NCBI RefSeq assembly: GCF_037975245.1
Contig: NC_092576.1
Location: forward strand, 19,676,111-19,740,110
Direction: 5' to 3'
DNA length: 64,000 nt
Origin: Apostichopus japonicus
Taxonomy: Eukaryota > Echinodermata > Holothuroidea > Aspidochirotida > Stichopodidae
Shown here: positions 2,481-60,455 of the stretch, piece by piece
How positions within the stretch are numbered: position 1 is the stretch's first letter
Layout: every line of letters starts with the position of its first letter
Notes under the pieces: model-generated
What the model was told of the DNA's origin: nothing
The model's database searches: none
What the model saw: the letters and a program-made list of their open reading frames with translations, nothing else
Made by a program: the position numbers and the translations under genes

Positions 2481-2682
2481 TGGACCTGCCCTACACCTCG
2501 CGTACCTAACTACAGTACAGAAAATTGGTCGCGAGGGTAGCCATTTTCGTATATCTAACATGTAGCTGTCATGAGCCGTAACCAATCTGCTACAAACCAG
2601 ACTTGAAGGCGGGGCTTAATCATCAAAAACGGACCTTTTACTAAAAGTAGGGGCTGCAGCTCAGTGTTGTTTTAAGAAAGAA

Positions 2683-6405: not shown

Positions 6406-6415
6406 GTGCGTCAAT
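6406..6415 (+). repeat. Left direct repeat (target duplication) GTGCGTCAAT
   Basis: This 10-bp sequence immediately precedes the left inverted terminus and is repeated exactly at 46,690-46,699, just outside the right terminus. It may be a 9-10-bp target duplication or, if a tyrosine recombinase acts, a shared crossover core. Confidence 0.85.
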
Positions 6416-6417
6416 TA

Positions 6418-6652
6418 CTACACTCTAAAAACAAAAGAGTGAATTTTCACTCGTTTGGAGTGAATTCTCACTCTTTCTGAGAGTGTAGTGAGTGATCACT
6501 CCATGAAGAGTGAAATTCACTCTTTCAAAAGAGTGAGAATGTTCACTCCTTCAAAGAGTGAGCTTTTCACTCTGAAAGAGTGGGCTTTTTCACTCTAGAA
6601 AGAGTGAGAATCACTCTTTTAAAAGAGTGAATTTCACTCTTTAAAGAGTTAA
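6418..6652 (+). repeat. Left inverted terminus and subterminal GAGTGA/TCACTC cluster
   Basis: The terminal 35 bases match the right end inverted. The following roughly 200 bp hold about twenty GAGTG or CACTC words, mostly arranged as short palindromes of the form CACTCTTT...AAAGAGTG. Such clusters are typical binding sites for proteins that pair transposon ends. The left cluster is clearly denser than the right one. Confidence 0.85.
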
Positions 6653-7633
6653 TGATATTTTACAGCTGATTTTGAGGGACGGGATTGATAGAATGAGTTT
6701 GAGACTCAATGGAAAGGCCCTATCTATTCACAGAAATATTGCTAAACAAGGATGCATCCAAAGATCAAGACAATGGAATGGGCTACTACGCTGATGATAA
6801 GACGATTTACTAGATTTAGACACTGTTAACAAATATAAAAAAGGACAAAGACAACAATTTATGGTACTAAATATATATTAAATAGTGAAAATGATACCAA
6901 GTTTCATATACAAACACAGAATGAAGCAAAATTACAAACATACAAAGGCACAAAAATTTGCAATGAATGATTCACTCACCCCACTTGTATGTTCCTCTCA
7001 TACAAATGTGATTTTCTTATAATTAAAAAATAATTCTAGTTACGTCTATGAAACATGTACCAGAGTGTGCTGGCAATACCTCAAAAATGTTTTTGCAAAT
7101 AACTCAATCTTACAATTTCAATTTGCAATATGCAAACATTTATCATTTTCGAACTCGTTTTGGCGTCTTTATAAATCTGTGAAAAATGTATGAAGAACAA
7201 CAATCACACTGGGATACTACTGTTTATGACTGGTGAACCGATATTTTACAGCAAAATGGTTAATTCCTGACAGATAGTAATTAAACGCTCCATCCTATGT
7301 ACATCTAAACCCGTCAACCCTCTGGGTGGCAACACTTTTAGGTTTAGAATAGTAATTTATGCAAACATTTGAAAGGAAATTAACTGAGTACATACCACGT
7401 ATTATTAATTCATATTAAGGCACTAGTAAATATATTTAAATAAAAAAAAAAAATCTAAATATTTTAACTATGGGAATTGGATCACAACAATTCAATTTGC
7501 TTTTTGAAAACAATACCCACCTAAAAGAATTTCATGTTATAGGGTACTCATAACAGAGTTTCAAAGTTCAAAATAATGGTGGCGTCTGAAAACAGTCTAA
7601 GAGTGTCCAATTTTTAAACAGATGCATTTAGAC
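6653..7633. other. AT-rich spacer, nothing recognised
   Basis: I see no coding region, repeat or splice-supported exon between the left subterminal cluster and the foldback repeat. Only short homopolymer runs are present. Confidence 0.4.
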
Positions 7634-10600
7634 CGGGAGCCCAGAGGGTTTGGTTAGCTGGGAAGGTAACCAATTGCCTTGTACATCACAATGTTCACAG
7701 TGCATTCCTGTATATGAGACCAGACGACTGGCAAACCGGCTGTGGTGGGTGTGGCTGGGAGAGCAATTTTAAAGTCACCTAATAGCTAACCTAGATCAGC
7801 TTTCATGGTAACCACATCAAAGTAAGTACAATGTGTCAGGTATGGCCCCAAGAGCAACAAATGGCCATCGCCAGTAATTATTGGTGGTGGGGTACCCCTG
7901 CCAGTCATCAATAATTGACCCCTCACGGCTGACCTAGGTCAGCTCACGAGGTAACCAGTTGAAACCTACTGGAAAATGATGGTTAGGATTTCAGATACAA
8001 GGGATGGGCATTGCCAGTGATTTTTATTGGTGGGGTACCCCTGCCAGTAGACCCCCAAAATGCCCCTCCCCTCATTGACCTAGGTCAGCTCATGAAGTAA
8101 CCAGTTGAAAACTACTGGAAAATGATTGGCAGGACTCTATGTGTAAGGAATGGGCATTTCCAGTAATTTATATTGGTGGGGTACCCCTGCCAGTAGACCC
8201 CCAAAATGCCCCTCCCCCTCATTGACCTAGGTCAGCTCATGAAGTAACCAGTTGAAAACTACTGGAAAATGATTGGCAGGACTCTATAGGTAAGGGATGG
8301 GCATTTCCAGTAATTTGTATTGGTGGGGTACCCCTGCCAGTAGACCCCAAAAATGCCCATCCCCTCATTGACCTAGGTCAGCTCATGAAGTAACCAGTTG
8401 AAACCTACTGGAAAATGATTGGCAGGACTCTATATGTAAGGGATGGGCATTTCCAGTAATTTATATTAGTGGGGTACCCCTGCCAGTAGACCCCCAAAAT
8501 GCCCATCCCCTCATTGACCTAGGTCAGCTCATGAAGTAACCAGTTAAAAACTACTGGAAAATGATTGGCAGGATTCTATATGTAAGGGATGGGCATTTCC
8601 AGTAATTTATATTGGTGGGCCACCACTGCCAGAGTCCGCCCCCCCCCCCCCTTATTAACCTAGGTGAGCTTATGGTGTAACCAATTGAAAACTACTGGAA
8701 AATGATAGGTAGTACTCCAGATTTAAGGAGAGTCATTTCCAGTAATTTCCACTGGTGGGGTACCCCTGTCCATTGTCCCAACATCTCCAACCACTGTCTC
8801 ACATTATATTATAGCTCACACCCCAAGACTCCCCGAAACACCCCAGATACAGTGTAACCACTCATAGGTGGCCTCAAATGACTGAATACAACCTGTGTGG
8901 TTATTCAGGAAGTATGTTCTTGACAGTCTACGTTCATTTCATTCAGCTGTTCTGAAGTGGTCCGTTCAAGTTACCGTAGCTTTACTAATGCCAAGGTGAT
9001 TGTCTGATTGAAACACGTGGTCCATGCCAGTGTCACCAGCCTGTTTCCCGGGGTCAAGGAAAAATATATTAATCTGGTGAATGATTCACTGTTTGTGATT
9101 TTTGTTGCCATTCCAATTTCTTTTAGCATGGGGAAATTTTTTGTGAAAAACCATAAAACAATAATCTACGACCTATGACCTGAAACTTGGTTTCTTTGAG
9201 AGGACTATATATAAACTCTGATCATTGACTTTGACCTCTCGATAACCACTGTGAATAAACAAATTCCATGCAATGAAAGAAAGAAGTTATGACTTTTTAT
9301 AACCCTCCCCTATGTCAGTATGTGTACTAACTTTATATGAAGACCTATTATTAGAGGTAAACTTTAATTTGTTCACTGTTTTTAGTACAATTGACAATTG
9401 GGACAATGGACAGGGGTACCCCACCAGTGGAAATTACTGGAAATGACTCTCCTTAAATCTGGAGTCCTACCTATCATTTTCCAGTAGGTTTCAACTGGTT
9501 ACATCATGAGCTCACCTAGGTCAATGAGGGGGATAGGCATTTTGGGGGTCTACTGGCAGGGTTACCCAACTAATATAAATTACTGGAAATGCCCATCCCT
9601 TACATATGAAGTGATACCTATCATTTTCCAGTAGGTTTCAACTGGTTACATCATGAGCTCACCTAGGTCAATGAGGGGGATGGGCATTTTGGGGGTCTAC
9701 TGGCAGGGGTACCCCACTAATATAAATTACTGGAAATGCCCATCCCTTACATATATAGTCCTGCCAATCATTTTCCAGTAGTTTTTAACTGGTTAGCTCA
9801 TGAGCTCACCTAGGTCAATGACAGGAGGGGCATTTTGGGGGTCTACTGGCAGGGTTACCCAACTAATATAAATTACTGGAAATGCCCATCCCTTACATAT
9901 GAAGTGATACCTATCATTTTCCAGTAGGTTTCAACTGGTTACATCATGAGCTCACCTAGGTCAATGAGGGGGATGGGCATTTTGGGGGTCTACTGGCAGG
10001 GGTACCCCACCAATATAAATTACTGGAAATGCCCATCCCTTACATATATAGTCCTGCCAATCATTTTCCAGTAGTTTTTAACTGGTTAGCTCATGAGCTC
10101 ACCTAGGTCAATGAGGGTATGGGCATTTTGGGGGTCTACTGGCAGGGGTACCCCACCAATATAAATTACTGGAAATGCCCATCCCTTACATATAGAGTCC
10201 TGCCAATCATTTTCCAGTAGTTTTCAACTGGTTACTTCATGAGCTGACCTAGGTCAATGAGAGGAGGGGCATTTTGGGGGTGTACTGGCAGGGGTACCCC
10301 ACCAGTAAAAATCACTGGCAATGCCCATCCCTTGTATCTGAAGTCCTAACCATCATTTTCCAGTAGGTTTCAATTGGTTACCTCGTGAGCTGACCTAGGT
10401 CAGCCGTGAGGGGTCAATTATTGATGACTGGCAGGGGTACCCCACCACCAATAATTACTGGCGATGGCCATTTGTTGCTCTTGGGCCATACTGTACCTGA
10501 CACATTGCATTTACTTTGATGTGGTTACCATGAAAGCTGATCTAGGTTAGCTATTAGGTGACTTTAAAATTGCTCTCCCAGCCACACCCACCACAGCCAG

Positions 10601-10702
10601 TTTGCCAGTCGTCTGGTTTCATATACAGGAATGCACTGTGAACATTGTGACGTACAAGGCAATTGGTTACCTTCCCAGCTAACCAAACTCTCTGGGCTCC
10701 CG
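7634..10702. mobile_element. 3.07-kb foldback (long inverted repeat) element
   Basis: The left arm (7,634-8,782) and right arm (9,394-10,702) are long inverted repeats around a spacer of about 610 bp. Each arm has a unique outer part beginning CGGGAGCCCAGAG and then about 145-bp tandem units, six on the left and seven on the right. The units contain GGGGTACCCC-like sequence, CTGGAAAATGAT, and TGACCTAGGTCA palindromes. No target duplication was found. This fits a foldback-type non-autonomous element; transcription would give a long hairpin RNA. Confidence 0.88.
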
Positions 10703-11124
10703 CTCTAATTGGTACCATGTAAAGTAATAAAGATGAATGAAAAATATATCAAAATAGAAAGTTAGTCAAGTAGTCTAAATTTTGAGTTCATAATATGCTA
10801 TTGAATAATTCCTTTACAAAGAATGCATCATTTATTAAAGGTTAAATTAAACCTTTTAATTACTAACATAGCAGTACGTAATGAATAAAACATACCTTCA
10901 TATGCTTCTTAAAACTATCAAACTTGTTAATAAAGAATAACCAAAGTTGGAATTTAAAGGTAAACAGACAGGTCAAAGTTCCCATTCATATAGAAGTATA
11001 TGTAATTCTGAGTAAGATGGTCTCTGAAAAGTCAAAATAGCAGCTGCACTTTTCAAGTAATATCCACTTTAATTTTAAGCTGACAAAATTTGATAGCAAA
11101 ATGTCATAACCCCTCTGACAGGGT
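10703..11124. other. Spacer, nothing recognised
   Basis: AT-rich sequence between the foldback element and the small hairpin. No coding or repeat structure was seen. Confidence 0.4.
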
Positions 11125-11234
11125 GCTATTACTTCAGTTGAAATATCATAAACCACCCAAATATATATATATATATATAATTTTTTTTTTTTTTTGGGGG
11201 GGGGGGGTTATGATATTTCAACTGAAGTAATAGC
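11125..11234. repeat. Perfect 27-bp inverted repeat around (AT)n, T and G tracts
   Basis: The stretch 11,125-11,151 is repeated exactly, inverted, at 11,208-11,234. The loop is (AT)n followed by T15 and G12. It may be a minimal hairpin MITE or a replication-derived palindrome. Confidence 0.85.
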
Positions 11235-11486
11235 TACCTGTCTACATACCTTTAATCTTTGAATCTATGAATGCTCACACATTTGCCAGAGAAACATTCA
11301 GAGACCTAACTTTCGGACTTACCTTATCTGGTCTTACTATGCACCTTAAATATTAGCCCTTCAAAAATATAATTGTAAAATGTTGTTAATGGAATGGCAA
11401 AATGAATATTAAAACAAATGAAATTTAAAAATCCTGCCAATTGCAACTGTGATGGAGTCCCAAACTGGTGAGCTTGTTGAATCAAC

Positions 11487-14074: not shown

Positions 14075-14108
<34 letters not shown>

Positions 14109-14110
14109 AG
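11487..14110 (+). repeat. TGACCT-rich interspersed repeat, copy 3
   Basis: It starts with the same ACAAGAGCCCAAGGGCACTG sequence as copy 2 and follows it through to the (CA)n tract at 14,076-14,102. It lacks the GGTTCC...GGAACC hairpin end seen in copies 1 and 2; a different hairpin sits at that point. Internal subunits of about 400 bp repeat, for example the CACATGACCGTTAAG word at about 12,060, 12,460, 12,860, 13,157 and 13,816. Many perfect AGGTCA direct repeats with 4-bp spacing are present. Confidence 0.85.
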
Positions 14111-14114
14111 CATT

Positions 14115-14184
14115 GCATACTGATGTGGGACAGGTTTTTTCACCTACTGTTGTGGGCCACTTTCTCTGTCCCACATCTGTATGC
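14115..14184. repeat. Hairpin carrying the CTGTCCCACA motif
   Basis: GCATACTGATGTGGGACAG at 14,115-14,133 is answered by CTGTCCCACATCTGTATGC at 14,166-14,184, a nearly perfect 19-bp stem with a 32-base loop. The right arm matches the core of the minisatellite units at 21, 23, 34 and 44.5 kb of this window. It lies about 0.8 kb upstream of the SET/recombinase start codon. Confidence 0.8.
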
Positions 14185-14248
14185 AAAGTACTCACACAAC
14201 TGTTCAGATTAGTGTAAGCCATTCATTGCCCATTGCAGCCAAAATACA

Positions 14249-14347
14249 TTGTGTGAGCAATGTGCAATGCTGCCCCCACTTTCTAGTTGCCATGAAGAAC
14301 TGTCTGACTCAGAAGGTAGAGATTTGGTTGTGACTTTGGATTTAAAG
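14249..14347 (+). other. Possible 5' untranslated exon of the SET/recombinase gene
   Basis: A good donor (TTAAAG|GTAAGC) ends at 14,347. If spliced to the exon at 14,942 it would be upstream of the start codon and noncoding, because its own reading frame is not compatible with the SET frame. There is no promoter evidence. This is tentative. Confidence 0.25.
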
Positions 14348-14948
14348 GTAAGCCATTCATATTGGATTTCAACTTCTGCAATTTTGCTAAGAGTAAGGCC
14401 TAGACTTCTCCCTGTTCTTCAATTAGTTTAGGCTTAGTAATATGAGGATTGGCTGGGCCCCACAGGCTTAAGTACTACCCTAACGTTAGTAGGGGCCTAC
14501 TGGCTAGCCTAACGCCAGCCTAGCCTACAGTAGGCATCTAGGCTACATGGCTTAGGCCACTGTAAGTGTAAGCCTAGGCCTATTTCTCAGCAAATTTTTG
14601 TATTTCCACCGGCATGCACAAGCTTGTCCAAAAACAAGGTTTGGGGATAAAAATGGAAAACTATATCAGCTTTTGGCAACATTGTGCGTTGTACTGTTTT
14701 GTGACAAGAGTCAGAAAGAAAATACATGTTTTGAATTTAGGTCCTAGGCTAGGCCTAGTACTACATGAAATTTCCTTAGGCAAATCATTAGTTATTGAGA
14801 AAGTGGTGAATATCTTCTGTACAGTAGGTGTTCACTCACACCTGGGTGGGGATGATCCTTAATGGCAAATCAATTCCAGTTTCATTTATATTGTAAAAAA
14901 AATCCAAACTGCCCAAGCCAAAATGTTGTCTTTTATTACAGATTAATC

Positions 14949-35900: not shown

Positions 35901-38304
35901 ACACATTTTCTCTGTAATAAATCTGGCCACTCAGCCCTAATAGATCCTTAATGCACAGTAATGCACAAATCACTTGTTTGCCTTTATAACTATAAAAGAA
36001 TAACTAATTTGAGTTTGGCTGGTTTATTTGTTAATGGTGAACATTTCAAATCTTATTTCAAAGATTCCAGACAGGCTAAGACACCTAACTCACCTTTACG
36101 AGAGTGAAGAAGAAAGTGAAGAAGAAAGTGAAGAAGAAAGTGAAGAGGAAAGTAGTGGATTCGAATCTCCAGGCCCACAGACCTCATCTGACGACACTAG
36201 TAGTTCCTCGGATTCCATGCCATCTACATCCAAAGTTCTAAAAGTAACATCTACCAAATTTAGCACAGCCCCCACCTCCAAGAGAATGTGGGACAGAGTA
36301 CATTGCTGTCTGTACTGTGAAAAGGTTGTCCCTAAGATTGCGCGCCATCTGCAAACCCACCATGCAGGAGAGGCCTTAGTGGTCAAAGCTCTTCTGTTGC
36401 CCAAAAAATCATCGGCTCGTAATGCAGTTTTTGAAGATATTAGAAAGAAGGGGGACTATGCATACAATTCCAAAGTTATAAAGGAAGGGATGGGGGAATT
36501 ATTGGTATATAAGCGGCCAAAAGTGGGGACCATGGGACCAGCAGATTATTTACCATGTCCTCATTGCCATGGGTATTTTGTCAAAACTGCTTTGTGGCGA
36601 CATGAGAGCAACTGCACAGCTAAAAAGACCAGTGAATCACCCAAGCTGTCAAACTGTCAAATGGCTGGAGGTGCTCTTCTCCCAACTAAGGAACCTTGCA
36701 GTTCCAAACTTCAAACTATTCTAGCTAGTATGAGGTCAGATGGGATAGTTCTGACAATAAGGGGGGATGAGTGGATTTGCAAGTATGGAGAGCACCATGT
36801 AGATGATGGTCATAATGAAATGACTTGCCGGAATATTGTGTCAGAAAAGATGAGACGCATTGCCGGGCTTCTTTTAGAAGCTAAGAAAATATGTCCCAAT
36901 GTGGAGTCTGCAAAGGACTTGATTGATCCATCAAACTTCACAAAAGTTGTTCAGGCGGTCAGAGTTTGTTCTGGGTTCAATGCCAGCACACAAGCCTTTG
37001 CTTCACCTTCTCTTGCGAATAAGCTTGGACAAAGCTTGGCAGTGCTAGCTGAGCTTGTCATTAGTGATGCCATTGAAACTGGAAACACTGAGTATGAATA
37101 CAAAGCAGAACAGTTCCTTAAACTGAAGAGTTTCAAATGGAAGAAGAACATTTCTTCCAAAGTGTATAAGCAGCAGTGTAAACAGACATGGGAGAAGCCC
37201 AAAAAGATCCCATTAACTGCTGATACAGTTAAACTTAATCAGCTGATTTTGAACAAAACAAAAGAAACAAAACAAAAGATAGAATCAGATGGTGTCACAA
37301 CCTCCCTCTGGAGAGAGCTAGCCTCCCTAACACTAAGTAATGTCATAACATTCAACAGACGCCGGCCTGGGGAAACACAGTTCCTCAACTTGGACTGGTA
37401 TCAAACCCACATCACCAAGGCTGATGAGTTTCACGATGAAATATACCAATCACTGCCTTTGCCCCAGAAACTAGCCTTGAAAAGGCTGACATTAATAATG
37501 ACTCGAGGGAAGAAGGGCCGTGGTGTGCCAATCATGCTCACAGAGGATATGGTTGAGTCTTTGACCATACTGAATGAGAACCGGGAGGCTGCAGGGGTTT
37601 CTGGAGAGAATCCTTACGTTTTTGCCTGCCCAAGTGACGAATCAGTGCAGCCTCTAAGAGGCCATCAATGTTTGAAGCAACATGCCAAACAATGTGGTGC
37701 TAAGCATCCTAGCAGGCTTACGGCAACAAATCTCAGGAAACACTTAGCCACAGTGTCACAAATCCTTAACCTGTCCTCATCAGAACTGGAGCAATTGGCC
37801 AACCATTTGGGCCATGACGTCAATGTTCATCGACAGTATTATCGCCTTCCCCAGGATATTATTTTCCTGGCCAAAATCAGTAAGTTGCTACTGAAGGCTG
37901 AGGAAGGCAGCATCCACGATCTGAAAGGTCAGTCACTGGATGACTGTCAGATCCAAGGAGATCAGGTCCTGTCCGACATAGAGATAGATAGTGATTGTGA
38001 TGGGAGTGATGACAGTGGTGATGACTGTGTGCCAAAAAAAGCCACAAAAAAACCTAAAAAAGAACCCAAAAAAAGGGTGAAAGTTGTGAAAAAGAAATGG
38101 AGTGAGACCGAAGAGAGTGCTATCATGAGTGATCCTCATCTGCAAAAAGCTCTCAAAACAATGCATCCGCCCAACACTGATGAGTGTCTCCAAGCAAAAT
38201 CTAAACATCAGTGTCTCCAAAACAGGTCTGTCAGCCAAATAAAATCCAAAGTTTGGAACATAATTCAGAGGGAAAAAAAAGGAATAAATCGGGCTGAACA
38301 CTAA
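14949..38304 (+). CDS. SET domain-tyrosine recombinase-SANT fusion protein (16-exon model)
   Basis: Exons: 14942-14975, 17386-17488, 17975-18119, 19345-19540, 19883-19973, 20692-20765, 22701-22748, 24144-24197, 24540-24582, 24967-25029, 26053-26112, 28446-28471, 29494-29550, 31416-31460, 32714-32767, 36064-38304. All junctions are GT-AG, phases agree throughout, and the model is 1,108 codons with no internal stop. Residues about 30-150 are a KMT5A-like SET domain (GCGLFA, EYRGN, YDYG). A Cys cluster follows (173-189), then short acidic exons, an ESEE repeat (375-392), zinc fingers at about 443-462 and 527-546, a tyrosine-recombinase domain (about 790-970) and a SANT-like end (about 1038-1102). 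I recognise related SET and recombinase proteins in fish and invertebrate predictions. The likely role is mobilising DNA and/or acting on chromatin in the nucleus. Small in-phase exons could be missed. Confidence 0.82.
17386..19540 (+). CDS. SET-domain exons (exons 2-4) of the fusion gene
   Basis: Three exons (17386-17488, 17975-18119, 19345-19540) encode the methyltransferase-type domain. The N-flanking helix region ends FVNDWIG, followed by GCGLFAT, DFIAEYRGN, YYFGF, CIDASANPC, FANDD, PHLCLFATADI and YDYGVSSLPWR. In KMT5A the AdoMet-binding motif is NHS; here it is N106-D107-D108, a change I recall as typical of a separate SET subfamily in fish predictions. The catalytic tyrosine equivalent is Y144. 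Known SET proteins of this class methylate lysines; the substrate here is unknown and the altered NH motif leaves activity uncertain. Confidence 0.85.
18532..18902. mobile_element. 371-bp hAT-like MITE in intron 3
   Basis: The termini are inverted repeats CATAGGCGTAGGAG and CATAGGCATAGGAG. AGTACAGC occurs at 18,524-18,531 and 18,903-18,910 as an 8-bp target duplication, as expected for hAT. G-runs and C-runs lie just inside the ends. The element is noncoding. Confidence 0.85.
21258..22425 (+). repeat. Minisatellite array 1, about 58-bp units
   Basis: Roughly twenty units share the core TGTCCCACAACTGTATGTG, followed by GAGGTAAGTTCTAT and an AATGGATTACTTCAAT stretch. Most units contain the U1-type splice-donor consensus GAGGTAAGT. 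The array fills the intron between exon 6 (ends 20,765) and exon 7 (starts 22,701). Confidence 0.9.
22461..22535 (+). mobile_element. tRNA-derived SINE head
   Basis: A tRNA-like stretch has an A-box-like TGGTGCAGTGG near 22,471 and a B-box-like GGGTTCCAATCC near 22,511, 30 bp apart. A copy at 23,931-23,975 keeps the B box but has lost the A box. RNA polymerase III promoter function is inferred only from these boxes. Confidence 0.65.
23125..23875 (+). repeat. Minisatellite array 2
   Basis: This array uses the same unit family as array 1, with a longer internal period of about 175 bp visible at 23,340-23,700, where neighbouring blocks repeat almost exactly. Long open frames on both strands here are artefacts of the repeat. 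Confidence 0.85.
24310..24402 (+). repeat. Degenerate TAGG/TAGA microsatellite
   Basis: A run of TAGG, TAGA and CAGA tetranucleotides follows the partial third copy of the duplicated segment. Confidence 0.8.
25150..25640 (-). mobile_element. L2/CR1-type LINE fragment (reverse transcriptase end)
   Basis: Read on the minus strand, the sequence encodes YGLASCKIHKLQHVQNMAVK and, after an interruption, residues resembling the end of L2 reverse transcriptase with a KIFGDHSF motif. The usual LQxxQNxAAR motif is recognisable as LQHVQNMAVK. The fragment contains stops and is decayed. It sits in the intron after exon 10 (ends 25,029). Confidence 0.7.
26113..28445 (+). other. Long intron without recognised features
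   Basis: The interval between exon 11 and exon 12 shows no further exon in phase, no clear repeat structure beyond scattered TTGACC words, and one small inverted repeat (TGTGCCAGG ... CCTGGCACA near 28,170-28,200). Confidence 0.4.
29586..31110 (+). repeat. Diverged relative of the TGACCT-rich repeat family
   Basis: It starts with AACAAGAGCCC as in copies 2 and 3, and contains scattered TGACC and TTGACC words (for example near 29,800, 30,360 and 31,050). The identity is far lower than among the three main copies and the 3' limit is uncertain. It lies within the intron between exons 13 and 14. Confidence 0.45.
33560..35465 (+). repeat. Minisatellite array 3, 172-bp higher-order repeat
   Basis: Three related subunits of about 57 bp form a 172-bp higher-order unit repeated about six times between 34,150 and 35,270, with looser single units at both edges. 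Subunit cores are GTCCCACAGTTGTATGTG, GTCCCACAACTGTATATG and GCCCCACAACTGTATGTG. Only the first subunit keeps the AAGGTAAGTT donor consensus. The array lies in the last intron, before the recombinase exon. Confidence 0.9.
35466..36063 (+). other. End of last intron
   Basis: There is no gene here. Scattered TTGACC words at 35,550-35,680 resemble the dispersed repeat. The probable acceptor is TTATTTCAAAG at 36,063, which restores phase 0 with exon 15. Confidence 0.5.
36064..38304 (+). CDS. Tyrosine-recombinase exon (exon 16) of the fusion gene
   Basis: This single 746-codon terminal exon ends with TAA. In order it holds an ESEE acidic repeat, a C2H2 finger (CLYCEKVVPKIARHLQTHH), a second C2HC finger (CPHCHGYFVKTALWRHESNC), a helical core-binding-like region, and a recombinase catalytic domain. 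The catalytic residues in the 1,108-aa model are R794-R796 (FNRRRPGE), K845/K846 (GKKGRGVP), R920 (NLRKHLAT), H946 (HLGHD) and Y954/Y955 (RQYYRLP). A lysine-rich nuclear-localisation-like stretch precedes a SANT/Myb-like tail (KKKWSETEESAI, QNRSVSQIKSKVW). Crypton and Starship recombinases share this fold. Retention of R, R, H and Y suggests an active enzyme, which is an inference. The exon may have a history as a separate gene. Confidence 0.88.
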   Translation: MPDRLRHLTHLYESEEESEEESEEESEEESSGFESPGPQTSSDDTSSSSDSMPSTSKVLKVTSTKFSTAPTSKRMWDRVHCCLYCEKVVPKIARHLQTHHAGEALVVKALLLPKKSSARNAVFEDIRKKGDYAYNSKVIKEGMGELLVYKRPKVGTMGPADYLPCPHCHGYFVKTALWRHESNCTAKKTSESPKLSNCQMAGGALLPTKEPCSSKLQTILASMRSDGIVLTIRGDEWICKYGEHHVDDGHNEMTCRNIVSEKMRRIAGLLLEAKKICPNVESAKDLIDPSNFTKVVQAVRVCSGFNASTQAFASPSLANKLGQSLAVLAELVISDAIETGNTEYEYKAEQFLKLKSFKWKKNISSKVYKQQCKQTWEKPKKIPLTADTVKLNQLILNKTKETKQKIESDGVTTSLWRELASLTLSNVITFNRRRPGETQFLNLDWYQTHITKADEFHDEIYQSLPLPQKLALKRLTLIMTRGKKGRGVPIMLTEDMVESLTILNENREAAGVSGENPYVFACPSDESVQPLRGHQCLKQHAKQCGAKHPSRLTATNLRKHLATVSQILNLSSSELEQLANHLGHDVNVHRQYYRLPQDIIFLAKISKLLLKAEEGSIHDLKGQSLDDCQIQGDQVLSDIEIDSDCDGSDDSGDDCVPKKATKKPKKEPKKRVKVVKKKWSETEESAIMSDPHLQKALKTMHPPNTDECLQAKSKHQCLQNRSVSQIKSKVWNIIQREKKGINRAEH

Positions 38305-39155
38305 ATGCAGGCTATGGTCCTCTTAGTACGTCATTCACTATGTCTGTCTGTTACGCCGCTTAACATCCGAAGGACCATGCCACTCTGTCACCCTATCATG
38401 TCATTTCAGCTTGAAACCCCCCCCCCCCCAACTTGAACATGCCTAGTTGGATCAAGTTTATACTTTGTATGCATGTTCCCCATGATGGGCAATTCCACTA
38501 TATGCTTCACATTACATTTTAGTCATTTTCACATAAATATTTCAACCATGCATTTTATGTTTCCATCATCATAGTGTTGGAATATGTTGGCATAAGGCAT
38601 AAAATGGTAACAACAAATAATCATTGTATCACATACATCTGTTTAATTGGCACAAAATACAGCATGACCCACGTTACATGAAAAGGACTAACAAGCATTT
38701 TTTCTATACATGACAGAAAATAATCAATAACAAAGGTGGTTTAATTTATGTGTGCAATATTGGGATACATTGGAAGCAATTTTAGGTGATATGTAAATAA
38801 AATATTGATAAGTGTGACTCGTGCTATTGTGAGTCACGTTACATGTTTTTTTAACAGTTCTATAGGGCACAATCTGCGATATTTTTATGCGCTTTACAAT
38901 CTATCCCCTGGTCATCATTGACTTGTTAGACCTTCCTGCACACAGACATGTTCCCTCACACAATCTCTTTACTTCTCATGAACTTCTTCAGGTAAAACAG
39001 ATAAAAAGTAACACTAACCTTGTATTGTTTGGTAACCTGCAGATTGTAGTTAAACCTTAGAATACAGTTATTAACAATGTTAATCATGGACAGCCCATAC
39101 TGTCTGATACTGAACTGTTTGTCTGCTATCTACAGGTCCACAATGGACTGTTCAG
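38305..39155. other. Convergent 3' region between the two element genes
   Basis: The 3' ends of the + and - genes face each other here, 851 bp apart. A possible polyadenylation signal (AATAAA) for the + gene lies near 38,797-38,803. A C14 run is at about 38,415. No coding sequence was seen. Confidence 0.5.
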
Positions 39156-39944
39156 TTATTGGTGTTTCCGCTTTCTCACTAGCGTATGTATTTGATAATA
39201 TATCTCATCTGGGGAGTTAGGCCACTTCCAGTGTTTCCCAGCTGGGACCATAACAGAAACCTGGTAATCATCACCAAAGATCACTTGACTTCTCCTGGAT
39301 AGACCATACCCCCGTACTCAACAGCCCACCAGTCTCCCACAGAAATGCTGATGGCATTTTCTTCCAAACACTCAGAAGTTGCATCTTTAGTCAAAGTGAA
39401 ATGCACAGCTTTATAATAAACGTGCTTCATGTGATGTACACCACCAATAAACCTTTTGGAAACCTCAATCATAGCAAGTGTCACATTCATTGAACCAAAG
39501 TGAAAGGCTAGGTGGATCACACAGGAAAGCCTGTGGTAGATCATGTGTGTATGTTGGTGCAGAAGGGTCAGGTTAAGGCAAAGTGTGTATTTCAGTCAGT
39601 GTTTCAAACCAAACAAGTCAGGAGTATTCTTATCAGGGTAAATCATTACTCAGGCCTGTTATAGGCCTACAGTTTATGAATATACATATTTACAGGAGAA
39701 CTTGTCTAACTTTGGTTAGAAGAATTAACCCCACAGTGCGTCAAACGTTGTATACTCGTTTTCAAACAAAGGAGGGCACCCATAGCTCTAATGTGTGCAA
39801 ATTCATGTGATGATGACTGTAGTCATCCAGTGCCTACTTGCTTAAAAACGGGCCGCAACACCCAGTGGCGTGTGAACTAGGAACTAAGTTCCGTGTTCAA
39901 TCAATTTCTGAATGGGTTTAAAGCTTTGTTTCAACAAATTGCTT

Positions 39945-40030
39945 CGTTTTTTTTTGTGTATGCTAGATTATGGAATTCATCTTTAATATGTATGTATGCT
40001 AGATTATGGAATTCATCTTTAATATGTGCA
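39945..40030 (+). repeat. Two-copy 38-bp tandem duplication
   Basis: The segment ATGCTAGATTATGGAATTCA plus the following 18 bases occurs twice in direct succession at about 39,959-40,028. The remaining sequence to 41,900 is AT-rich with no gene seen. Confidence 0.7.
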
Positions 40031-42099
40031 GCTCTCAACAAACATCACTAATACAGCTTAAGGTGACATCACACTATAATTTGGAATATTTTATTTTTTT
40101 GTATACAAGCAATGGATTGATCAATTACAATGATTCATTTTTAGAAAATTGCATAAATTTCTGAAAATGTATGTACATTGAGATGTTTATAATAAAATTG
40201 TTGACAATATAATCAAATTGGAAGCCAACTGAAATGGACAACTTCAAATTAAAACCTATTGTAATTTTGCAATAAATTGATCAATTTTAATCTTTTCTAA
40301 AAAATGCCAATTTCTTTAAACACATGATATTATAATTATTGACAGTATAAAATTGAATGCAATCAAATTGGAATTTGAATGAAGTTAGCTCTGAACTGAA
40401 CAAAGTGCAAGTAATGCAATGAACTAAGATACAGGTCATGAATTGTTGGTATTCTTGTTAATTAATATAACATATTAATTCCATACTAGTTTGTTTATTG
40501 TTTGAAAAACTATTTGTAACAGCGAAGTGCAATTAATGCAATGAACTAAAATACAGGTTAAAGATTATGCTTTGTTCATGCTCAGTGATTAACCTTCATT
40601 ACATACATGCAGAAGCAAGCCTAACCTTACCAACAAATTTGATATTTGTTCTGATTAATTTGTTAAAAAAATAAAAATGTAACTTTAAGTGATTTGTTTG
40701 AGAAGTTGGAGTTGGAGTAAATTCAAGTGGTTGGAGAAGAGAGTTGTAGTTTGAAAGATCAGGTTATTTTACTTTATTGAATATTGTACCATTATTCTTG
40801 TTCAAACCAGTTTTACAAAGTTTATTCAATATATTCTAGAAAACATAGAAACAAGATTTTCACTTATTTTTGTCTATTGTCGAGGAAGCAAGAGTGTGCA
40901 AGCATGCAAAATGTTACAGTATATCAAAAAGTCTGCATTCATCTTAGCTGTGTAAAAATCTTTGCTTGTAATGAAATGCTTTTAATCTATTAATTTACAA
41001 ACTTCAAATTTACATGCTTTCAAGGTTCAAACTTCACCAAATTTCATTAAATTTAATTGAATTCCATCATGTAAACAGTATTACTTCCTATTCAACACAC
41101 TGATCCTCTTTTTATTGTTGAATAAATAATGATCCAGTTGTGACACTATGGATGCATGAATTCTAGGTCAAATGTCATATTTTCAAGTCATTTTGTGGTA
41201 AATGAATATTTCTGTTCATACATGATTCACAAGAATCAGTGCAGCAACAGAGTGAATAAAATAAAAATCACCACAAATAATGTGCAATTAAGAAGTCAAT
41301 CAGTCTAAGATTGAGATAATCTAAATTTGTATGCAGTTAGTGATCGAATGAGCATACATTTCCAGGAACACACCTCTCCCATATCTTTTCTATTGATTTT
41401 CATCAGGATTGTCATGAAAACAAGGGGATAAGTGCATCAGTCTGGATCCATCTAAATTTTTCTGGTACACATCAAAAGTCCTTTGTCATTATTAATCATT
41501 CAACATAGTGGTGATATAGTATCATGTGGTTCACTAGCTGTTTAAATTATCGTAGTGCAAATAGAAAACAATACTTATGTACCGATGTCTGTAATATAAT
41601 ATAGTATAGTTCATTATCAGCGAGCCATAAATGGGTCCAGACTTTGACTGACCGAACTAGGGACTAGTGAACAACACCCATATTCTCGGGAGCTACAGTA
41701 TGTTCAAATCTGCAGAGAAATAAGTTATTCTGGTCAGTTCAATTGTTGTAATATATGTGCATGAGTTAGAGTTAACTATCTGAAAAACATTGTCCCTGGA
41801 AACTTGACTAAAAAATTGCCAGTTTCAAGATTGTGATTCTAGGGAAATTTCAGGGGCGCCAACATTTTTGGGGAGGGTTGCATGGAACACCATCCATAAT
41901 TGTATCAGTATTTTTTGTCCTGGGGGCAGGGGCGTGGCTAATTATAAATCTTGAGCAGTCCAATAATTTCATGGGGGAGGGCGGTCACCTACTAAAGTTA
42001 AGCAGAGCACCACAATCGGTTGGCACGCAGCGTAGTGACGAAATGACACTTTCCAGACCTTGCAGATCTCATGAAGAAAATATTTTGACTTTTAGTTTA

Positions 42100-42835
42100 T
42101 ATAGTTTGATAACTATATCAATTGGTAATGTTCAGGTTTGCCCTTCCACTCATGCGCATAATCTTGGTGCAGTGGCATAGGAAGGTACTTTTGAGTGGGG
42201 GGGGGGGGGCTGAAGACTGATGGCTGGCCTGGGGGAGGGGTCTAAGGGGAGGGGGTGTCCCCCTCCCCTTTGGATTTTTTTTGCATTTCCAGGGGGCCTC
42301 AGATGCAATTTGGTGCAATATAGCACACTTCAACCCACCCACTCCATTTTGTATATAATTTTGCATTTTCACCTGGCCTTAGATGCAATTTGGTGCTCCA
42401 AATGAGATTTTTTTCTCATTTGGAAATGAAAAAGGGGTTTTCTGACGTGCGAAGCGGGGGGGGCGGAATGATACTTCCGCCCCTCCACATTTTTCACTGG
42501 GGGGGGGGGCTGGCGCCCCCCCCCAGCCCCCCCGGTTCCTACGCCCTTGTCTTGGTGTAATTTTGATTCCAATATGTCTATGAAACTCCACATTTCCAAA
42601 TTAACAAGTTCTGCTGCATTTCATCTCAGAGGCATCTACAAATTACGAAAATATTTAAATGATAAGGCAACTGAACAAAGTGTACGTTCTTTTATCACTT
42701 CAAGGTTGGATATGGGCAATTCCTTACTTCTCAGTCTTCCACAAGAACAGATTCATAGACTCCAAATAATCCAGAACTCAGCTGCGCGTATTGTAACTCA
42801 TTCTCATATAATCGTATTATTATTATGTTAACTAT
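42100..42835 (+). mobile_element. L2/CR1-type LINE fragment, split by a MITE
   Basis: The left part (to 42,169) reads VCPSTHAHNLG and the right part (from 42,558) continues VILDSNMSMKLHISKL, FHLRGIYKLRKYL, SFITSRLDMGNSLL and LQIIQNSAARIV, all hallmarks of the C-terminal part of L2/CR1 reverse transcriptase. Removing the MITE and one target copy restores the frame. The fragment is truncated soon after ARIV and is on the opposite strand to the fragment at 25 kb. Confidence 0.85.
42170..42549. mobile_element. 380-bp hAT-like MITE inserted in the LINE
   Basis: The ends CAGTGGCATAGGAA and (inverted) CAAGGGCGTAGGAA resemble the CAGTGGCGTAG-type ends common in hAT MITEs. TCTTGGTG occurs at 42,162-42,169 and 42,550-42,557 as the 8-bp target duplication. 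G-runs and C-runs lie at the edges. It is noncoding. Confidence 0.9.
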
Positions 42836-44310
42836 AGGTGGGGTATTCAAACATCTGATTCCCGTCTGGATTTATGTTGGGTGGGACTGCACTTTTCTGT
42901 AAAGCGGTACGGAAGGACGCATATTTGGCTATTGGCTATAAGGCGTGATTTCAATCCCCCCCCCCCTCAGGCTTGGTGGCGAAAGTTCCGACTGATTCCA
43001 AACTGGCGGTTATTTGCTAGAACGTGAACAATTCTAATGATGCTGCCGAATACTAATACACACGTGCCCAGAGCGTGCGAAAAATTTTGGCCACTGTGAA
43101 ACATGTTTTACCTTAATATGATGTTGGAATTGAATACAGTTTAAGAATAATCAACGGGTACAAAAAAGGTCATTCCTTAGTCCCTTCTATTTTCTCTCCT
43201 TCATGCACTTTTTAAAATCCCCATACATCCCCATACATTTACCTCAGATTGAACCCTGAATATTATATACTATACTAATGAGTTATTTATTCAAAATGCT
43301 ATTAGATGTTGCTTTTCCCCGAAAATGACATTTACAATGAGTCAAAAAGAGGGGTTTCTCCCTGAATGTAAGGGTAAATGCAGCCTTTTAGAGGGTTTTC
43401 CACAGTATGTTAAAGGAGCAATGAGGTTTTTAACTCAATTGACTTATTGTAACTTAGTCATTTCAGGGATTGACACCAAATTTGTGACATGTCATGACCG
43501 AGAGACATACAGTTTTTAAAACATACCTTCACCTCAATCATAAATCAGTTGGGGAAATCCCTCTTTCTGACTCAGTGTAATGACCATTGACTCACTGCAA
43601 TGGGGTTTCAATCTCATTGCCCCCATATACTTATTGTAGACAAACACATCAATATTAATGAGGTTGCATTTTACCATTACAAGCAGGAACACATTGAATA
43701 TTTAATAGGTTATGACCAAGAGGCATATTGAAAATCAATTTGAGGCCCAAGGTTCAAATCAGTGTTGATACCAAGTTTGACAGCAGGTCAAGGGTCATTT
43801 TTTAGAAAAATGTCACAATACAGCATTTTGAAATGCAAATATATCCACAATATTGGGTTATATTCACTCAAATTCTAGTATTCCAGAAGACCTCAATAGG
43901 GTGAAAAAAGTGATGCAACTTGAAGTCAAAGGTTATTGTATTTTTCATGTACATTGCTCCTCAAAATGACTGAAAATTGATTTAAAGTGATTTACAAATG
44001 AGTATATCTCAAAAATGAACATGTCAATTTACAATTAGAGGCCAAATTTACAATCTATTACAAAATTATAGGCATTTGCAGACATTGGGATGTTTCGTTG
44101 TCTTTTTGGTAAATTGGATGATTTCACATGGAATGACCCACAAATGCTCTGGATGCCTGGTCTATCATTTGAAAATATTAAATTTTAACTTCTGCCACAA
44201 AAATATTTTTGTATTTTGTGCCAGAGATATGGGTGTTTATTACTATACATTTTCCCATCAAAAGGCTCTTCATAAATATGATATGGCATACAATGAATGA
44301 AGTACTCACA
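42836..44310. other. Unrecognised sequence inside the element
   Basis: No coding or splice-supported exon was identified. The sequence at 43,320-44,060 has short repeated phrases such as GACTCA...CAATGAG and GTCAAAGG and may be an old repeat; no family is proposed. Confidence 0.35.
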
Positions 44311-44317
44311 TACCAAC

Positions 44318-44684
44318 ACTTGTGGGACAGTTTCTATCCATTAGGCAAAGAAAGTGAAAATACTCTTGTGGGACGGGAGGGCGCTATTGCACTCATTTAG
44401 TTTCACTCTTTCACACAACTTGAACAAAAGTACATACATTTGTGGAAAAATATTTTTTTCGTGATTTTTTTTAGAATTTGTCATTTTGTAATTTTTTTAG
44501 CCAAAGAGCTATTGTGGGACGTCCCACAACCGTATGATACACAGAATATGTCCCACAACGGTATGGAAGTATGTTCCCGGCTGTCCCACAACGGTATGGA
44601 CTGCAAGTGCACACATACACACGCACACACACACATACGCCAACCTGACTGCATAGGTTCCTTTTGCTAAAGCAAGGAACCAAA
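44318..44684 (+). repeat. GTCCCACA motif cluster fused to the 3' end of the TGACCT-rich repeat
   Basis: The motif appears as TTGTGGGAC at 44,320, 44,367 and 44,512, and as GTCCCACAACNGTATG at about 44,520, 44,551 and 44,582, with a GTGGGACGTCCCAC palindrome at 44,515-44,528. A (CA)n tract and the hairpin GGTTCCTT...AAGGAACC (44,656-44,681) follow, identical to the 3' end of repeat copies 1 and 2. Confidence 0.8.
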
Positions 44685-45439
44685 AATGAAAAAGAATTGG
44701 GTTGGCCTCCTGTCTGGACCTTGGCCCAGCAGAAAAGGTTGGGTACACTTCAGGGGCTTCTCCTTAACAAATTGGCCAACGTTGGTGCACACAGCCTACC
44801 TGAAACGACAAAGTTATTTCAAATCATTATTACCCAGTTAAAAATGTGTGGTTATGGATATAATGGACAGATTTTTTTAGTTTATAATTCTGTGGTACAC
44901 TTTAGTTGACAAAATAACGTCTTTACATCACTATCAATTTTGTCTATTAAAAACTATCCAACAGTTGAAGCAGGAAGGGTAATAACCTTTACACCAAACA
45001 CAACAAATGGTCCTTACCTTTGGTACTGCACTAACAGAACAATACAGTGTGTGTAGTCATATATAACGCTCTTAGGATATTCCCTTTTAGGGCTTAGAAG
45101 TTCAATCAATCTTTTGGCATAAGTTTCTCTCTCTGCTGCATAGGACCATTAACATCCCTGTTGTAAGCAATCATTCAGATTTTCCAACACAGTTGATAGA
45201 TTAATTCTATTTTCTGTCCATATTAATTTTGTATTCCCTTGTGAATTAAATAGTGAAAGGGGATACATCTTTGTTGTATAATTAACTGGTAAAGGGCAAC
45301 GTTATAATTATTGATATTCCTTTCAGACCCTGACTGGTTTTCTACATTATTACTCATTGCTGTCTGTACTATGAATGAAGAAGTTACTCAACATCACAGA
45401 TAGTACCCATTTTAAAGTAGATGAATCTTGTGTTTGCTT

Positions 45440-45590
45440 TGGAGGGTGTTTCATTTGCTATGTCCATACACTGTGTATAGGCATTTGTAACTCTTCGGAT
45501 ATTCGCTTTTAAGGGGTTAGAAGGTCATGCAATCTTTTGGCATAAGTTTCTTTCTCAGCTGCGTAGGACCATAAACATACCTGAATTGTT
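45440..45590 (-). pseudogene. Degenerate duplicate of the middle exon of the minus-strand gene
   Basis: Read on the minus strand, the sequence encodes SYAAEKETYAKRLHDLLTP and, after a one-base shift, KSEYPKSYK. This parallels SYAAERETYAKRLIELLSP and KREYPKS in the exon at 45,018-45,135. It has no good donor and an in-frame stop, so it is a tandem exon copy that has decayed. Confidence 0.75.
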
Positions 45591-46483
45591 TGTACTGTAA
45601 ATGCTATTTAACCTTAATGCCATGTAGGCTAGTATTTTTCTCCCGTATATTGAGGTTAAATTGATATAGACCTAGTGAACTTTGTAAAGAGGGACATACA
45701 TATATATTATTAGCTATTGCTATTCATGATAGTTATGATTGAACATTGCAATTGTTTGTCGTCCGAAGTTGATTGTTTCTACTATTATTTTGTAATTTTC
45801 TTTCAGGAAATTTCCCCTTATTCCGAATTTTCCACCTGTGAATAAATGTATCCAAAAACAACCTGGTAATTCTGCTGTCTCTGTTTCAGTTTGTGACGTT
45901 ACATCTTGATACGTGAAATAACAAAAAATCATAAAGGAAAACGTTCATTAAGAAAAAACAATTCCTGGACCTTAGCTGCATTAACTTCTGGCCCATTACT
46001 CATAGGCCTAACATTAGCCTTAAGCATAGGCATTACCTCCGAACACAGGCACTCGTAACGTTATGTAGGCGTGTTTATATACTATACACCTATACATAAC
46101 GTTACGAGTGCTTGTGCCTCCAAACAACTAGCCAATGTGTTAATGTGTATGGTACCAAGCCTAATGTTAAATGTTTCCGCTACACTGTTAAGCGTAACGT
46201 TTAAGAGCCTAGCCAATCGACTGTAGGCAACGACGACCTGCGGCCATGGCAACCTTCTAAATTCTATATAATTTCACGTTCTTTCAACATTTGCTTGTTA
46301 ACCTTACCTCCAAACAACTGAATACCATCACGTCCAAATCCGCTTTCTTCAAGCCACTGCGAAACTGACATGTTTTAAGATGTAAAACGACACGAACGAG
46401 CGAAGGCAAACGAGTAAAAAAAATGGCGTAACTACAAATATTTCTGTATTCGAAGAAACGCGTACTGACTGATTGGTTGATCC

Positions 46484-46688
46484 TTCACTCCAAAGTAAGA
46501 GTGAGCGTTCTTAGCATTTGATTGGCTCATTTGTTCACTCCTTTGTAAACAGTGAATATTAAGTAATTTAGCTTTGAAATACGAAGATTTCTGTTGTCTA
46601 ATGGAGTGAATTTCCGCTCCTTTGGAGTTAAATTTTTTTCACTCCGTGAGAAGAGTGAAAAGTTCACTCTTTTGTTTTTAGAGTGTAG
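46484..46688 (-). repeat. Right inverted terminus and subterminal cluster
   Basis: The outermost 35 bases match the left terminus inverted. Further TCACTCC, AGTGAAA and GAGTGA words occur from 46,484. The start of the minus-strand gene (46,371) lies just inside, so this end may also serve as its promoter region. Confidence 0.85.
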
Positions 46689-46689
46689 C

Positions 46690-46699
46690 GTGCGTCAAT
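46690..46699 (+). repeat. Right direct repeat (target duplication) GTGCGTCAAT
   Basis: An exact copy of 6,406-6,415, one base outside the right inverted terminus. Confidence 0.85.
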
Positions 46700-59786: not shown

Positions 59787-59796
59787 TTTTTTTTGT

Positions 59797-60340: not shown

Positions 60341-60455
60341 ACCAAGAAAATTGTGTGTGTTTCTCAAAACTACATATCTTCTTTTACACAAGTTGTTGCA
60401 AGAAAATAAGAGTACACACTGCCCAATCAATAGTATGTGTAAAACATAAGGTTTC

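What the first reader, a model, noticed from the sequence alone, without database searches (positions are those of the whole stretch)
6406..46699. A 40.3-kb element with inverted ends and a 10-bp direct repeat
The two ends share 26 identical inverted bases, then 9 more after a one-base gap. The same 10-bp GTGCGTCAAT flanks both sides, and both ends carry GAGTGA/TCACTC palindromes. The interior holds a recombinase gene and a second gene reading inward from the right end. Animal DNA transposons of this size are rare. The closest concept is a giant tyrosine-recombinase element, such as the fungal Starships, but in an animal and with introns.
Basis: partly seen in the sequence, partly recalled or inferred. 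Interest (0 to 1): 0.95.

Follow-up and report, generated by a model that had tools for sequence, protein, structure and literature searches.

The report
Giant recombinase transposon inside nested repeats
What looked like one 40-kb jumping element is three mobile elements nested in one another, and the innermost, about 30 kb, belongs to a family of giant transposons in this genome that pair a recombinase with a histone-methyltransferase (SET) domain and insert into simple CA repeats.

Summary
The paired ends exist, but they bound a nest, not one 40.3-kb element. (1) Outer: a 7.1-kb element with inverted ends starting CACT and a 2-bp (TA) duplication; 21 other end pairs span only 2.7-12.6 kb. 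GTGCGTCAAT is no target duplication: three of three copies read of a common host repeat carry it twice, 17 bp apart. (2) Middle: a repeat that looks like a Helentron-type non-autonomous element, inserted at 11485. (3) Inner: a 30.5-kb element (14105-44609) inside that repeat's CA tract, with KMT5A-type SET exons and an intact 763-aa tyrosine recombinase (YR).

Five further copies (21.6-25.2 kb) and a third family (about 50 kb) share this anatomy: 18-bp inverted arms, 11 bp, 6-bp CA-type core. All 14 junctions have such a core; 13 of 14 lie in CA-rich repeat. In the window, 58 arm-like sites lie inside the element, none outside. Of 59 scored YR matches, 41 have a SET match upstream on the same strand, against 0 in three control positions; eight pairs appear to share one reading frame. 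Ten searches of an open-access library showed no published description.

The parts
6419..6420 (.). TA target duplication, left, of the outer element
   Evidence: empty sites of copy L002; same dinucleotide on both sides in 21 of 22 end pairs read: 19 TA, 1 TG, 1 TT
6421..6443 (+). left terminal inverted repeat of the outer CACT-type element (CACTCTAAAAACAAAAGAGTGAA)
46663..46685 (-). right terminal inverted repeat of the outer element
46686..46687 (.). TA target duplication, right, of the outer element
6406..6415 (.). GTGCGTCAAT copy 1, in the host repeat that received the outer element; not a target duplication
   Evidence: the repeat carries GTGCGTCAAT twice, 17 bp apart, in 3 of 3 copies read; 38 of the 41 matches listed are other places that align over query 1-134 or 1-135, which spans both
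46690..46699 (.). GTGCGTCAAT copy 2
6421..11484 (+). left 5.06 kb of the outer element, with GAGTGA subterminal repeats and inverted arrays of 146-bp repeats (about 7930-10402)
   Evidence: 97% identical to L002
44682..46685 (+). right 2.0 kb of the outer element
   Evidence: 98% identical to L002
11485..44681 (+). middle element, Helentron/HINE-like by anatomy: starts ACAAGAGCCC, 400-bp tandem repeats, CA tract, ends in the hairpin GGTTCCTTTTGCTAAAGCAAGGAACC; inserted at GAATCA|AAAATG without clear target duplication; split by the inner element
   Evidence: uninterrupted site in L002; further copies in the window ending at about 827 and spanning 2682-5587
14105..44609 (+). inner element, 30.5 kb: giant SET-YR transposon between CA-type cores (borders good to a few bases)
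14099..14104 (+). left 6-bp core (CACATA)
44610..44615 (+). right 6-bp core (CACACA)
14116..14133 (-). left outer arm CATACTGATGTGGGACAG
44581..44598 (+). right outer arm CTGTCCCACAACGGTATG
17974..18120 (+). SET exon 1 (GCGLFATCDITSGDFIAEYRG...), with splice-type AG and GT borders; ends approximate
19340..19531 (+). SET exon 2 (...HLCLFATADIKVNDEVRYDYG...PWR); ends approximate
24936..25034 (+). stretch holding an exon conserved in the C11 and C9 copies (the C9 exon in turn matches C13)
26052..26117 (+). exon conserved in the C11, C9 and C13 copies; ends approximate
29482..29556 (+). exon conserved in the C11, C9 and C13 copies; ends approximate
36013..38304 (+). tyrosine recombinase, 763-aa open frame with two Cys/His motifs in its N-terminal part; R451, K500, R575, H601, Y610 are among the columns invariant in 16 of 16 aligned sequences
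21262..22420 (+). 57-58-bp tandem array of the outer-arm motif
23258..23857 (+). further array of the same motif
33571..35314 (+). further array of the same motif

Best explanation
The stretch is a nest of three insertions. A 7.1-kb non-autonomous DNA transposon with CACT ends landed at a TA in a host repeat; a Helentron-like repeat landed in it; a 30.5-kb transposon landed in that repeat's CA tract. The inner element is one of a family of giant tyrosine-recombinase transposons whose coding exons, spread over introns, hold a KMT5A-like SET domain and a tyrosine recombinase. Shown: the nesting, the termini, the CA-type target, the conserved catalytic residues, the SET-YR linkage, the internal arrays of arm motifs. 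Inferred: the recombinase excises the element as a circle whose joint reads 18-bp arm - 11 bp - 6-bp CA-type core - 11 bp - inverted 18-bp arm; strand exchange across the core with CA or CATA repeats inserts it and leaves a core at each end, sometimes of different sequence. The arrays may let the SET-YR protein coat the element, where the SET domain could mark its chromatin; this last step is speculative.
For: Nest: L002 equals window 6418-11485 plus 44677-46692 at 97-98% and lacks the 33 kb between; its own empty site in two paralogues gives TA as the duplication. The middle element starts where identity to L002 stops, and has further copies in the window with an unbroken CA tract. Inner termini: CATTGCATACNNATGTNGG has 6 hits in 671.6 Mb (0 for the reversed control), 6 of 6 lying 14-22 kb upstream of a YR match on the same strand; a 17-mer from the right end of the second family has 5 hits (0 control), pairing one to one with that family's 5 left ends at 21.6-25.2 kb. 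A third family with the same layout spans about 50 kb, read in one copy. All 14 cores of 7 elements fit CAYNYA (0.66% of background positions), and 13 of 14 stretches of core plus 24 bp outside hold 7 or more CA (background 120 of 41,504). YR: Pfam Phage_integrase in 3 of 16 sequences, best E 6.8e-5. SET: Pfam E 7.1e-14 in the window, 7.5e-20 and 9.3e-19 in two other families; nearest solved structures KMT5A. Linkage: 41 of 59 scored YR matches have SET within 40 kb upstream on the same strand, 0 of 59 in each of three control positions. Arm motif: 58 sites inside, 0 in 33.3 kb of window outside.
Against: The window YR has no Pfam match at E<=1; the Phage_integrase hits in 3 of 16 relatives are below the curated cut-off and cover only part of the profile, and an unrelated family (MOM1) is hit weakly by 4 of 16, best E 0.035. 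The PDB profile search gave two hits, at E 0.55 and 0.71, over the Cys/His motifs. The single-sequence fold was useless (mean pLDDT 35). The box II histidine position reads T (mapping recalled). 18 of 59 YR matches have no SET match nearby. One of 14 outer flanks (C9:31457445) is not CA-rich beyond the core; nor is the C17 locus that shares only the right 1.36 kb, left out of the 14 because its left end is unknown. The window element's left end has no second copy by DNA search. No circle, transcript or insertion polymorphism was seen. The SET copies read ND where KMT5A reads NH, so activity is uncertain.
Confidence: 0.86

Rival explanations
1. One reading: a single 40.3-kb element bounded by CTACACTC ends with a 10-bp target duplication, mobilised by the recombinase inside.
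For: Perfect 26-bp inverted ends and a flanking 10-bp repeat. The composite could in principle move as a unit by its outer ends.
Against: The 21 other end pairs read span 2.7-12.6 kb and the one read in full lacks the interior; the duplication is 2 bp; the 10-bp repeat pre-exists; the inner ends recur at five other loci that have no exact CTACACTCTAAAAAC within 100 kb.
Confidence: 0.02
2. The inner element is real but is moved by another enzyme; the SET-YR exons are passive cargo.
For: Some endogenous nimaviruses insert into (AT/TA)n microsatellites with a DDE transposase instead (PMC10871703, passages). No activity test was possible.
Against: SET and YR exons are what is conserved in order across three families; downstream of YR, the C9 and C13 copies share only the terminal region and weak short matches; an arm-core-arm layout is what YR sites look like (recalled); no fixed target duplication was seen.
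Confidence: 0.07
3. The inner element is the remnant of a large integrating DNA virus, like the YR-bearing nimaviruses that insert into microsatellites.
For: C2H2 plus YR protein and microsatellite target resemble nimaviral YRs (PMC10871703, passages).
Against: No relative of the YR in viral contigs in two scans; no further well-conserved gene seen between families. I did not scan every frame against viral profiles.
Confidence: 0.04

Closest known systems
Starships (fungal giant YR transposons, DUF3435 captain)
   Same: Tens of kb, moved by a tyrosine recombinase, some with terminal inverted and direct repeats, some inserting into other transposons (PMC12134995, passages).
   Different: No DUF3435 match in any of 16 YRs; coding exons split by introns, with a SET domain; YR toward the 3' side, not a leading 5' gene; CA-repeat target.
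Animal Cryptons (CryptonA, CryptonI)
   Same: Animal DNA transposons with a tyrosine recombinase.
   Different: Animal Cryptons are described without terminal repeats and without a C-terminal domain (PMC3212892 section 8); these have inverted arms, 22-50 kb, an N-terminal Cys/His part, a C-terminal extension in the two families read that far, and SET exons. Reverse transcriptase was not looked for.
Endogenous nimaviruses with tyrosine recombinases
   Same: C2H2 plus YR integrase, large element, insertion into microsatellite DNA, some multi-exon genes (PMC10871703, passages).
   Different: Those are crustacean viruses (one of 579 kb in the passages) that target (TAACC)n or 28S rDNA with their YRs; here no viral gene was seen and the target is CA/CATA.
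Outer element: CACTA/EnSpm-like transposons
   Same: Termini start CACT; subterminal short repeats in both orientations (family features recalled).
   Different: 2-bp TA duplication; no transposase found, so membership is open.
Middle element: Helentron-type non-autonomous elements (HINEs)
   Same: Tandem repeats, microsatellite, 3' hairpin, subterminal inverted GGTTCCTTGC, A-rich target without clear duplication (family features recalled).
   Different: No autonomous partner or RepHel protein was searched for.

Membership tests
Tyrosine recombinase superfamily (inner element protein) | catalytic R, K, R, H, Y in order | tested here: met
   R451, K500, R575, H601, Y610 invariant in 16 of 16 aligned sequences; the box II H position reads T572 (mapping to the signature recalled)
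Tyrosine recombinase superfamily (inner element protein) | profile match to Phage_integrase (PF00589) | tested here: inconclusive
   3 of 16 sequences at E 6.8e-5, 1.2e-4 and 0.01, all below the curated cut-off and over part of the profile; window none
Starship | DUF3435 (PF11917) captain as leading 5' gene | tested here: not met
   PF11917 not among the 18 families found at E<=1 in 16 sequences; YR lies 21.9 kb from the left and 6.3 kb from the right end; definition from PMC12134995 passages
Starship | fungal (Pezizomycotina) host | not testable with these tools
   genome unnamed, 671.6 Mb in 35 contigs
Animal Crypton | no terminal repeats | tested here: not met
   18-bp inverted arms in three families; definition PMC3212892 section 8
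Animal Crypton | no C-terminal domain | tested here: inconclusive
   153 residues follow Y610 in the window, with a stretch 57% identical in C11; most of the other sequences aligned were cut before this part
Animal Crypton | YR phylogenetically within CryptonA/I | not tested
   no Crypton reference sequences on hand
Endogenous nimavirus | viral core genes | tested here: inconclusive
   YR has no relative in IMG/VR by two scans; interior not scanned frame by frame
CACTA/EnSpm (outer element) | CACTA-family transposase | tested here: inconclusive
   no frame over 95 aa in L002; larger copies not read
CACTA/EnSpm (outer element) | CACT termini, 2-3-bp duplication, subterminal repeats (recalled) | tested here: met
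Helentron/HINE (middle element) | no target duplication, 3' hairpin, subterminal inverted repeats (recalled) | tested here: met
   one insertion compared with its uninterrupted site
Helentron/HINE (middle element) | RepHel-coding partner | not tested
   not searched

The most novel reading that the evidence does not exclude
A previously undescribed class of giant animal transposons in which one protein joins a KMT5A-type histone methyltransferase domain to a tyrosine recombinase. It inserts as a circle into CA/CATA microsatellites through an arm-core-arm site, and amplifies its own arm motif into long internal arrays, so that the element can be coated by, and chromatin-marked through, its own recombinase. 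The many compact SET-YR frames in the same genome would be smaller or older members.
Probability: 0.5. Interest if true: 0.87.

Novelty: new variant of a known kind. Interest (0 to 1): 0.78.

Why it matters
Giant recombinase-moved transposons are known from fungi and, as viruses, from crustaceans; a microsatellite-targeted family of 22-50 kb with a linked histone methyltransferase would extend them to what looks like an animal genome. It suggests a simple rule for where such elements can live harmlessly (CA tracts, themselves sometimes inside other repeats) and gives defined ends, core and recombinase with which circle formation and target choice can be tested directly. It also warns that some KMT5A-like gene predictions may be transposon genes.

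Tried and rejected
Rejected: the 40.3-kb unit and its 10-bp duplication (see above). An early test of flank similarity over 23 end pairs (window family without the duplicate L045/L046, plus L001 and L003) gave permutation p of 0.0003 and 0.00075, with the highest scores from the window and an AT-repeat insertion (L049) and two 7-bp matches (L023, L041); after the empty sites I read it as repeats already in the targets, which is shown for the window only. In my notes I first wrote a 16-bp spacer between the arms; the comparison gives 11 + 6 + 11.

Led nowhere: Pfam on the window YR; PDB profile search with 16 YRs; single-sequence fold (mean pLDDT 35; no fold search made); viral scans; the left inner end as DNA query (only itself); the C17 locus that shares only the right 1.36 kb; minus-strand frames 39159-39595. 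The third family (C13) was read end to end in one copy; of the other four YR copies of that family one was read in part, three not at all. Species not identified.

Rows and limits: one search scored 59 of 291 YR candidates; two of the 59 rows are fragments of one copy on C1, so 41 of 59 rows is 40 of 58 copies. One search scored 150 of 288 SET candidates and listed 148. One search listed only part of 279 places. Of 17 YR proteins aligned in the script, 16 went into A1; L085 was left out because its frame holds a stop. The duplication count uses 22 end pairs, of which L027/L028 and L045/L046 look like one insertion in a duplicated segment; L001 and L003 were left out of it. A weak upstream exon shared by the C9 and C13 copies was not found in the window.
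Full report
Observation. The ends described are in the sequence. Left CTACACTCTAAAAACAAAAGAGTGAA at 6418 and its exact inverse at 46688 match 26 of 26; GTGCGTCAAT occurs in the window only at 6406 and 46690. The 15-mer occurs 86 times in the 671.6-Mb genome against 5 for the reversed control.

Outer element. DNA searches with the two ends gave many paired copies. I read the borders of 22 end pairs: the window, L002 and 20 more, spanning 2.7-12.6 kb apart from the window. L002 (C16:14774853-14781954), the one read in full, is window 6418-11485 joined to 44677-46692, 97-98% identical, without the 33 kb between. Two paralogous empty sites of L002, on C16 and C8, read CACCTAGACC where L002 reads CACC-TA-CACTC...GAGTG-TA-GACC. 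So the duplication is TA and the inverted repeat starts CACTC. The flanking dinucleotide is the same on both sides in 21 of 22 pairs: 19 TA, one TG, one TT; L055/L056 is the exception.

The 10-bp repeat. The window's left flank belongs to a high-copy repeat: 38 of 41 listed matches of the joined flanks are other places that align over query 1-134 or 1-135, which spans both GTGCGTCAAT. The three copies read (L100-L102) carry GTGCGTCAAT twice, 17 bp apart, with no element between; the joined window flanks have the same 17-bp spacing. The letters between the two differ in the window, and its right flank follows another stretch of the repeat, so the exact empty site is not in hand; but no 10-bp duplication is needed.

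Middle element. Identity to L002 stops at ACAAGAGCCC (11485) and resumes after the hairpin GGTTCCTTTTGCTAAAGCAAGGAACC (ending 44681); L002 reads GAATCAAAAATG across this place. Further copies of the same repeat lie in the window, ending near 827 and spanning 2682-5587, with an unbroken CA-type tract before the hairpin. I call it Helentron/HINE-like from anatomy that I recall; no RepHel partner was sought.

Inner element. In the window copy the CA tract is broken: (CA)n, then CATTGCATACTGATGTGGGACAG at 14111, and on the right CTGTCCCACAACGGTATGGACTGCAAGTG followed by CACACATACACACG. The pattern CATTGCATACNNATGTNGG has six hits in the genome and none for the control; all six lie 14-22 kb upstream of a YR match on the same strand. 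Five belong to a second family whose YR is about 60% identical to the window's; a 17-mer of its right end, TATGGCTAGTAAGAACA, has exactly five hits, none for the control, one for each left end. The five elements measure 21.6, 22.2, 23.2, 25.2 and 25.2 kb. A third family (C13, YR 55% identical), read in one copy, has the same layout over about 50 kb.

Aligned, the 14 junctions of these seven elements give: 18-bp outer arm, 11 bp, 6-bp core, and outside it CA or CATA repeat. Cores: 13 of 14 fit CAYNCA, the window's left core is CACATA; all 14 fit CAYNYA, which matches 0.66% of background positions. The core was defined after seeing the alignment. The two cores of an element agree in 3 of 7 and differ in 4 of 7. 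Counting CA in the core plus 24 bp outside, 13 of 14 have 7 or more against 120 of 41,504 background 30-mers; the exception is the left flank at C9:31457445. The C17 locus that shares the right 1.36 kb ends at CACACA but is not CA-rich beyond. Three of the seven (window, C1, C16:155) sit in the CA tract of the same kind of middle repeat, judged by eye. The outer arm motif, at up to 4 mismatches, occurs 58 times in the inner element and not once in the 33.3 kb of window outside it that I scanned; most sites form the 57-58-bp arrays.

Genes. The YR frame (36013-38304, 763 aa) is open. In an alignment of 16 YRs of this genome, R451, K500, R575, H601 and Y610 are invariant, as are two sets of Cys/His in the N-terminal part. 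Pfam Phage_integrase is matched by 3 of 16, best E 6.8e-5, below the curated cut-off and over part of the profile, and not by the window sequence; MOM1, a family I take for chance, is hit by 4 of 16 at best E 0.035. Upstream exons lie in the same order in the window, C9 and C13 copies: two SET exons, short exons, then YR; in C11 the SET exons are at the matching place. The SET peptides match Pfam SET at E 7.1e-14 (window), 7.5e-20 (C9) and 9.3e-19 (C13); the nearest solved structures are KMT5A/SETD8 (best E 4.4e-14 for the window, 9.2e-22 for C9). Where KMT5A reads NH in GRLINHS these read ND (the motif's role is recalled).

Linkage across the genome. Of 59 scored YR matches, 41 have a scored SET match within 40 kb upstream on the same strand; 0 of 59 have one downstream on the same strand, and 0 of 59 on the other strand on either side. 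Two of the 59 rows are fragments of one copy. In eight pairs the open-frame lengths reported for the SET and YR matches are equal (1429, 1263, 1190 twice, 1169, 1096, 1022, 951 aa), so SET and YR very probably share one frame there; I did not read these frames through. In the window element the two are split by introns, and whether they are one protein is inferred. 18 of 59 have no SET match in reach; both lists are capped, and the SET query came from one family.

Mechanism. Shown: ends, target, conserved residues, linkage. Inferred: excision as a circle, pairing of the core with CA or CATA repeat, strand exchange over the core. Differing cores at the two ends would follow from a circle core meeting a different target core; repeat change after insertion is an alternative. 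A role of the SET domain in marking the element's chromatin through the arm arrays is a guess.

Known relatives. Starships are defined by a leading DUF3435 captain in fungi (PMC12134995, passages); none of 16 YRs matches DUF3435 and the YR is not leading. Animal Cryptons are described without terminal repeats or C-terminal domain (PMC3212892, outline with abstract and sections 5 and 8). Nimaviral YRs with C2H2 domains insert into microsatellites (PMC10871703, passages); two scans of viral contigs found no relative of this YR. Ten literature searches of the open-access library (listings only, apart from the three papers named) showed no SET-YR transposon; most subscription papers, bioRxiv and Repbase were not covered. 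I recall many KMT5A-like gene predictions in fish, unverified here.

Age and limits. Within the second family, C11 and C9 copies are 97.7% identical over 16.6 kb including arrays, and two others match the C11 right end at 99.8-99.9% over 0.6-0.9 kb, so movement was recent.

Noticed in passing
G000: L001, L003-L018: Several element families share the terminus CACTCTAAAAAC but differ in the subterminal motif (GTGCT, GGTGAAA, GGTTAA and others); two paired copies (L001, L003) span about 6.3 and 5.3 kb. A superfamily of CACT-ended elements.
   Followed up: partly
window 7847-10485: Large inverted arrangement of 146-bp tandem repeats inside the outer element.
   Followed up: no
window 1-827 and 2682-5587: Two more copies of the Helentron-like repeat left of the nest.
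   Followed up: partly
C17:12066555-12067764 (L067): A locus that shares only the right 1.36 kb of the inner element (94%), ending at the same place next to CACACA; perhaps a non-autonomous or rearranged member.
   Followed up: partly
L063-L066, L070, L071 (C9 and C11 copies): Tandem arrays of about 495 bp between the SET exons and the YR, apparently of different length in the two copies; the C13 copy has 204-bp and kilobase-scale arrays.
   Followed up: partly
window 39159-39595, minus strand: Frames with an aromatic-rich motif (DWWAV.Y...YPG, W.WP), no relative in the C9 and C13 copies.
   Followed up: yes
window 59796-60344 and 62102-63311: A 70-bp tandem array and a pair of inverted repeats right of the nest.
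   Followed up: no
C13:9228860, 9268887, 9308914: Three SET matches exactly 40,027 bp apart: a tandem duplication or an assembly feature.
   Followed up: no
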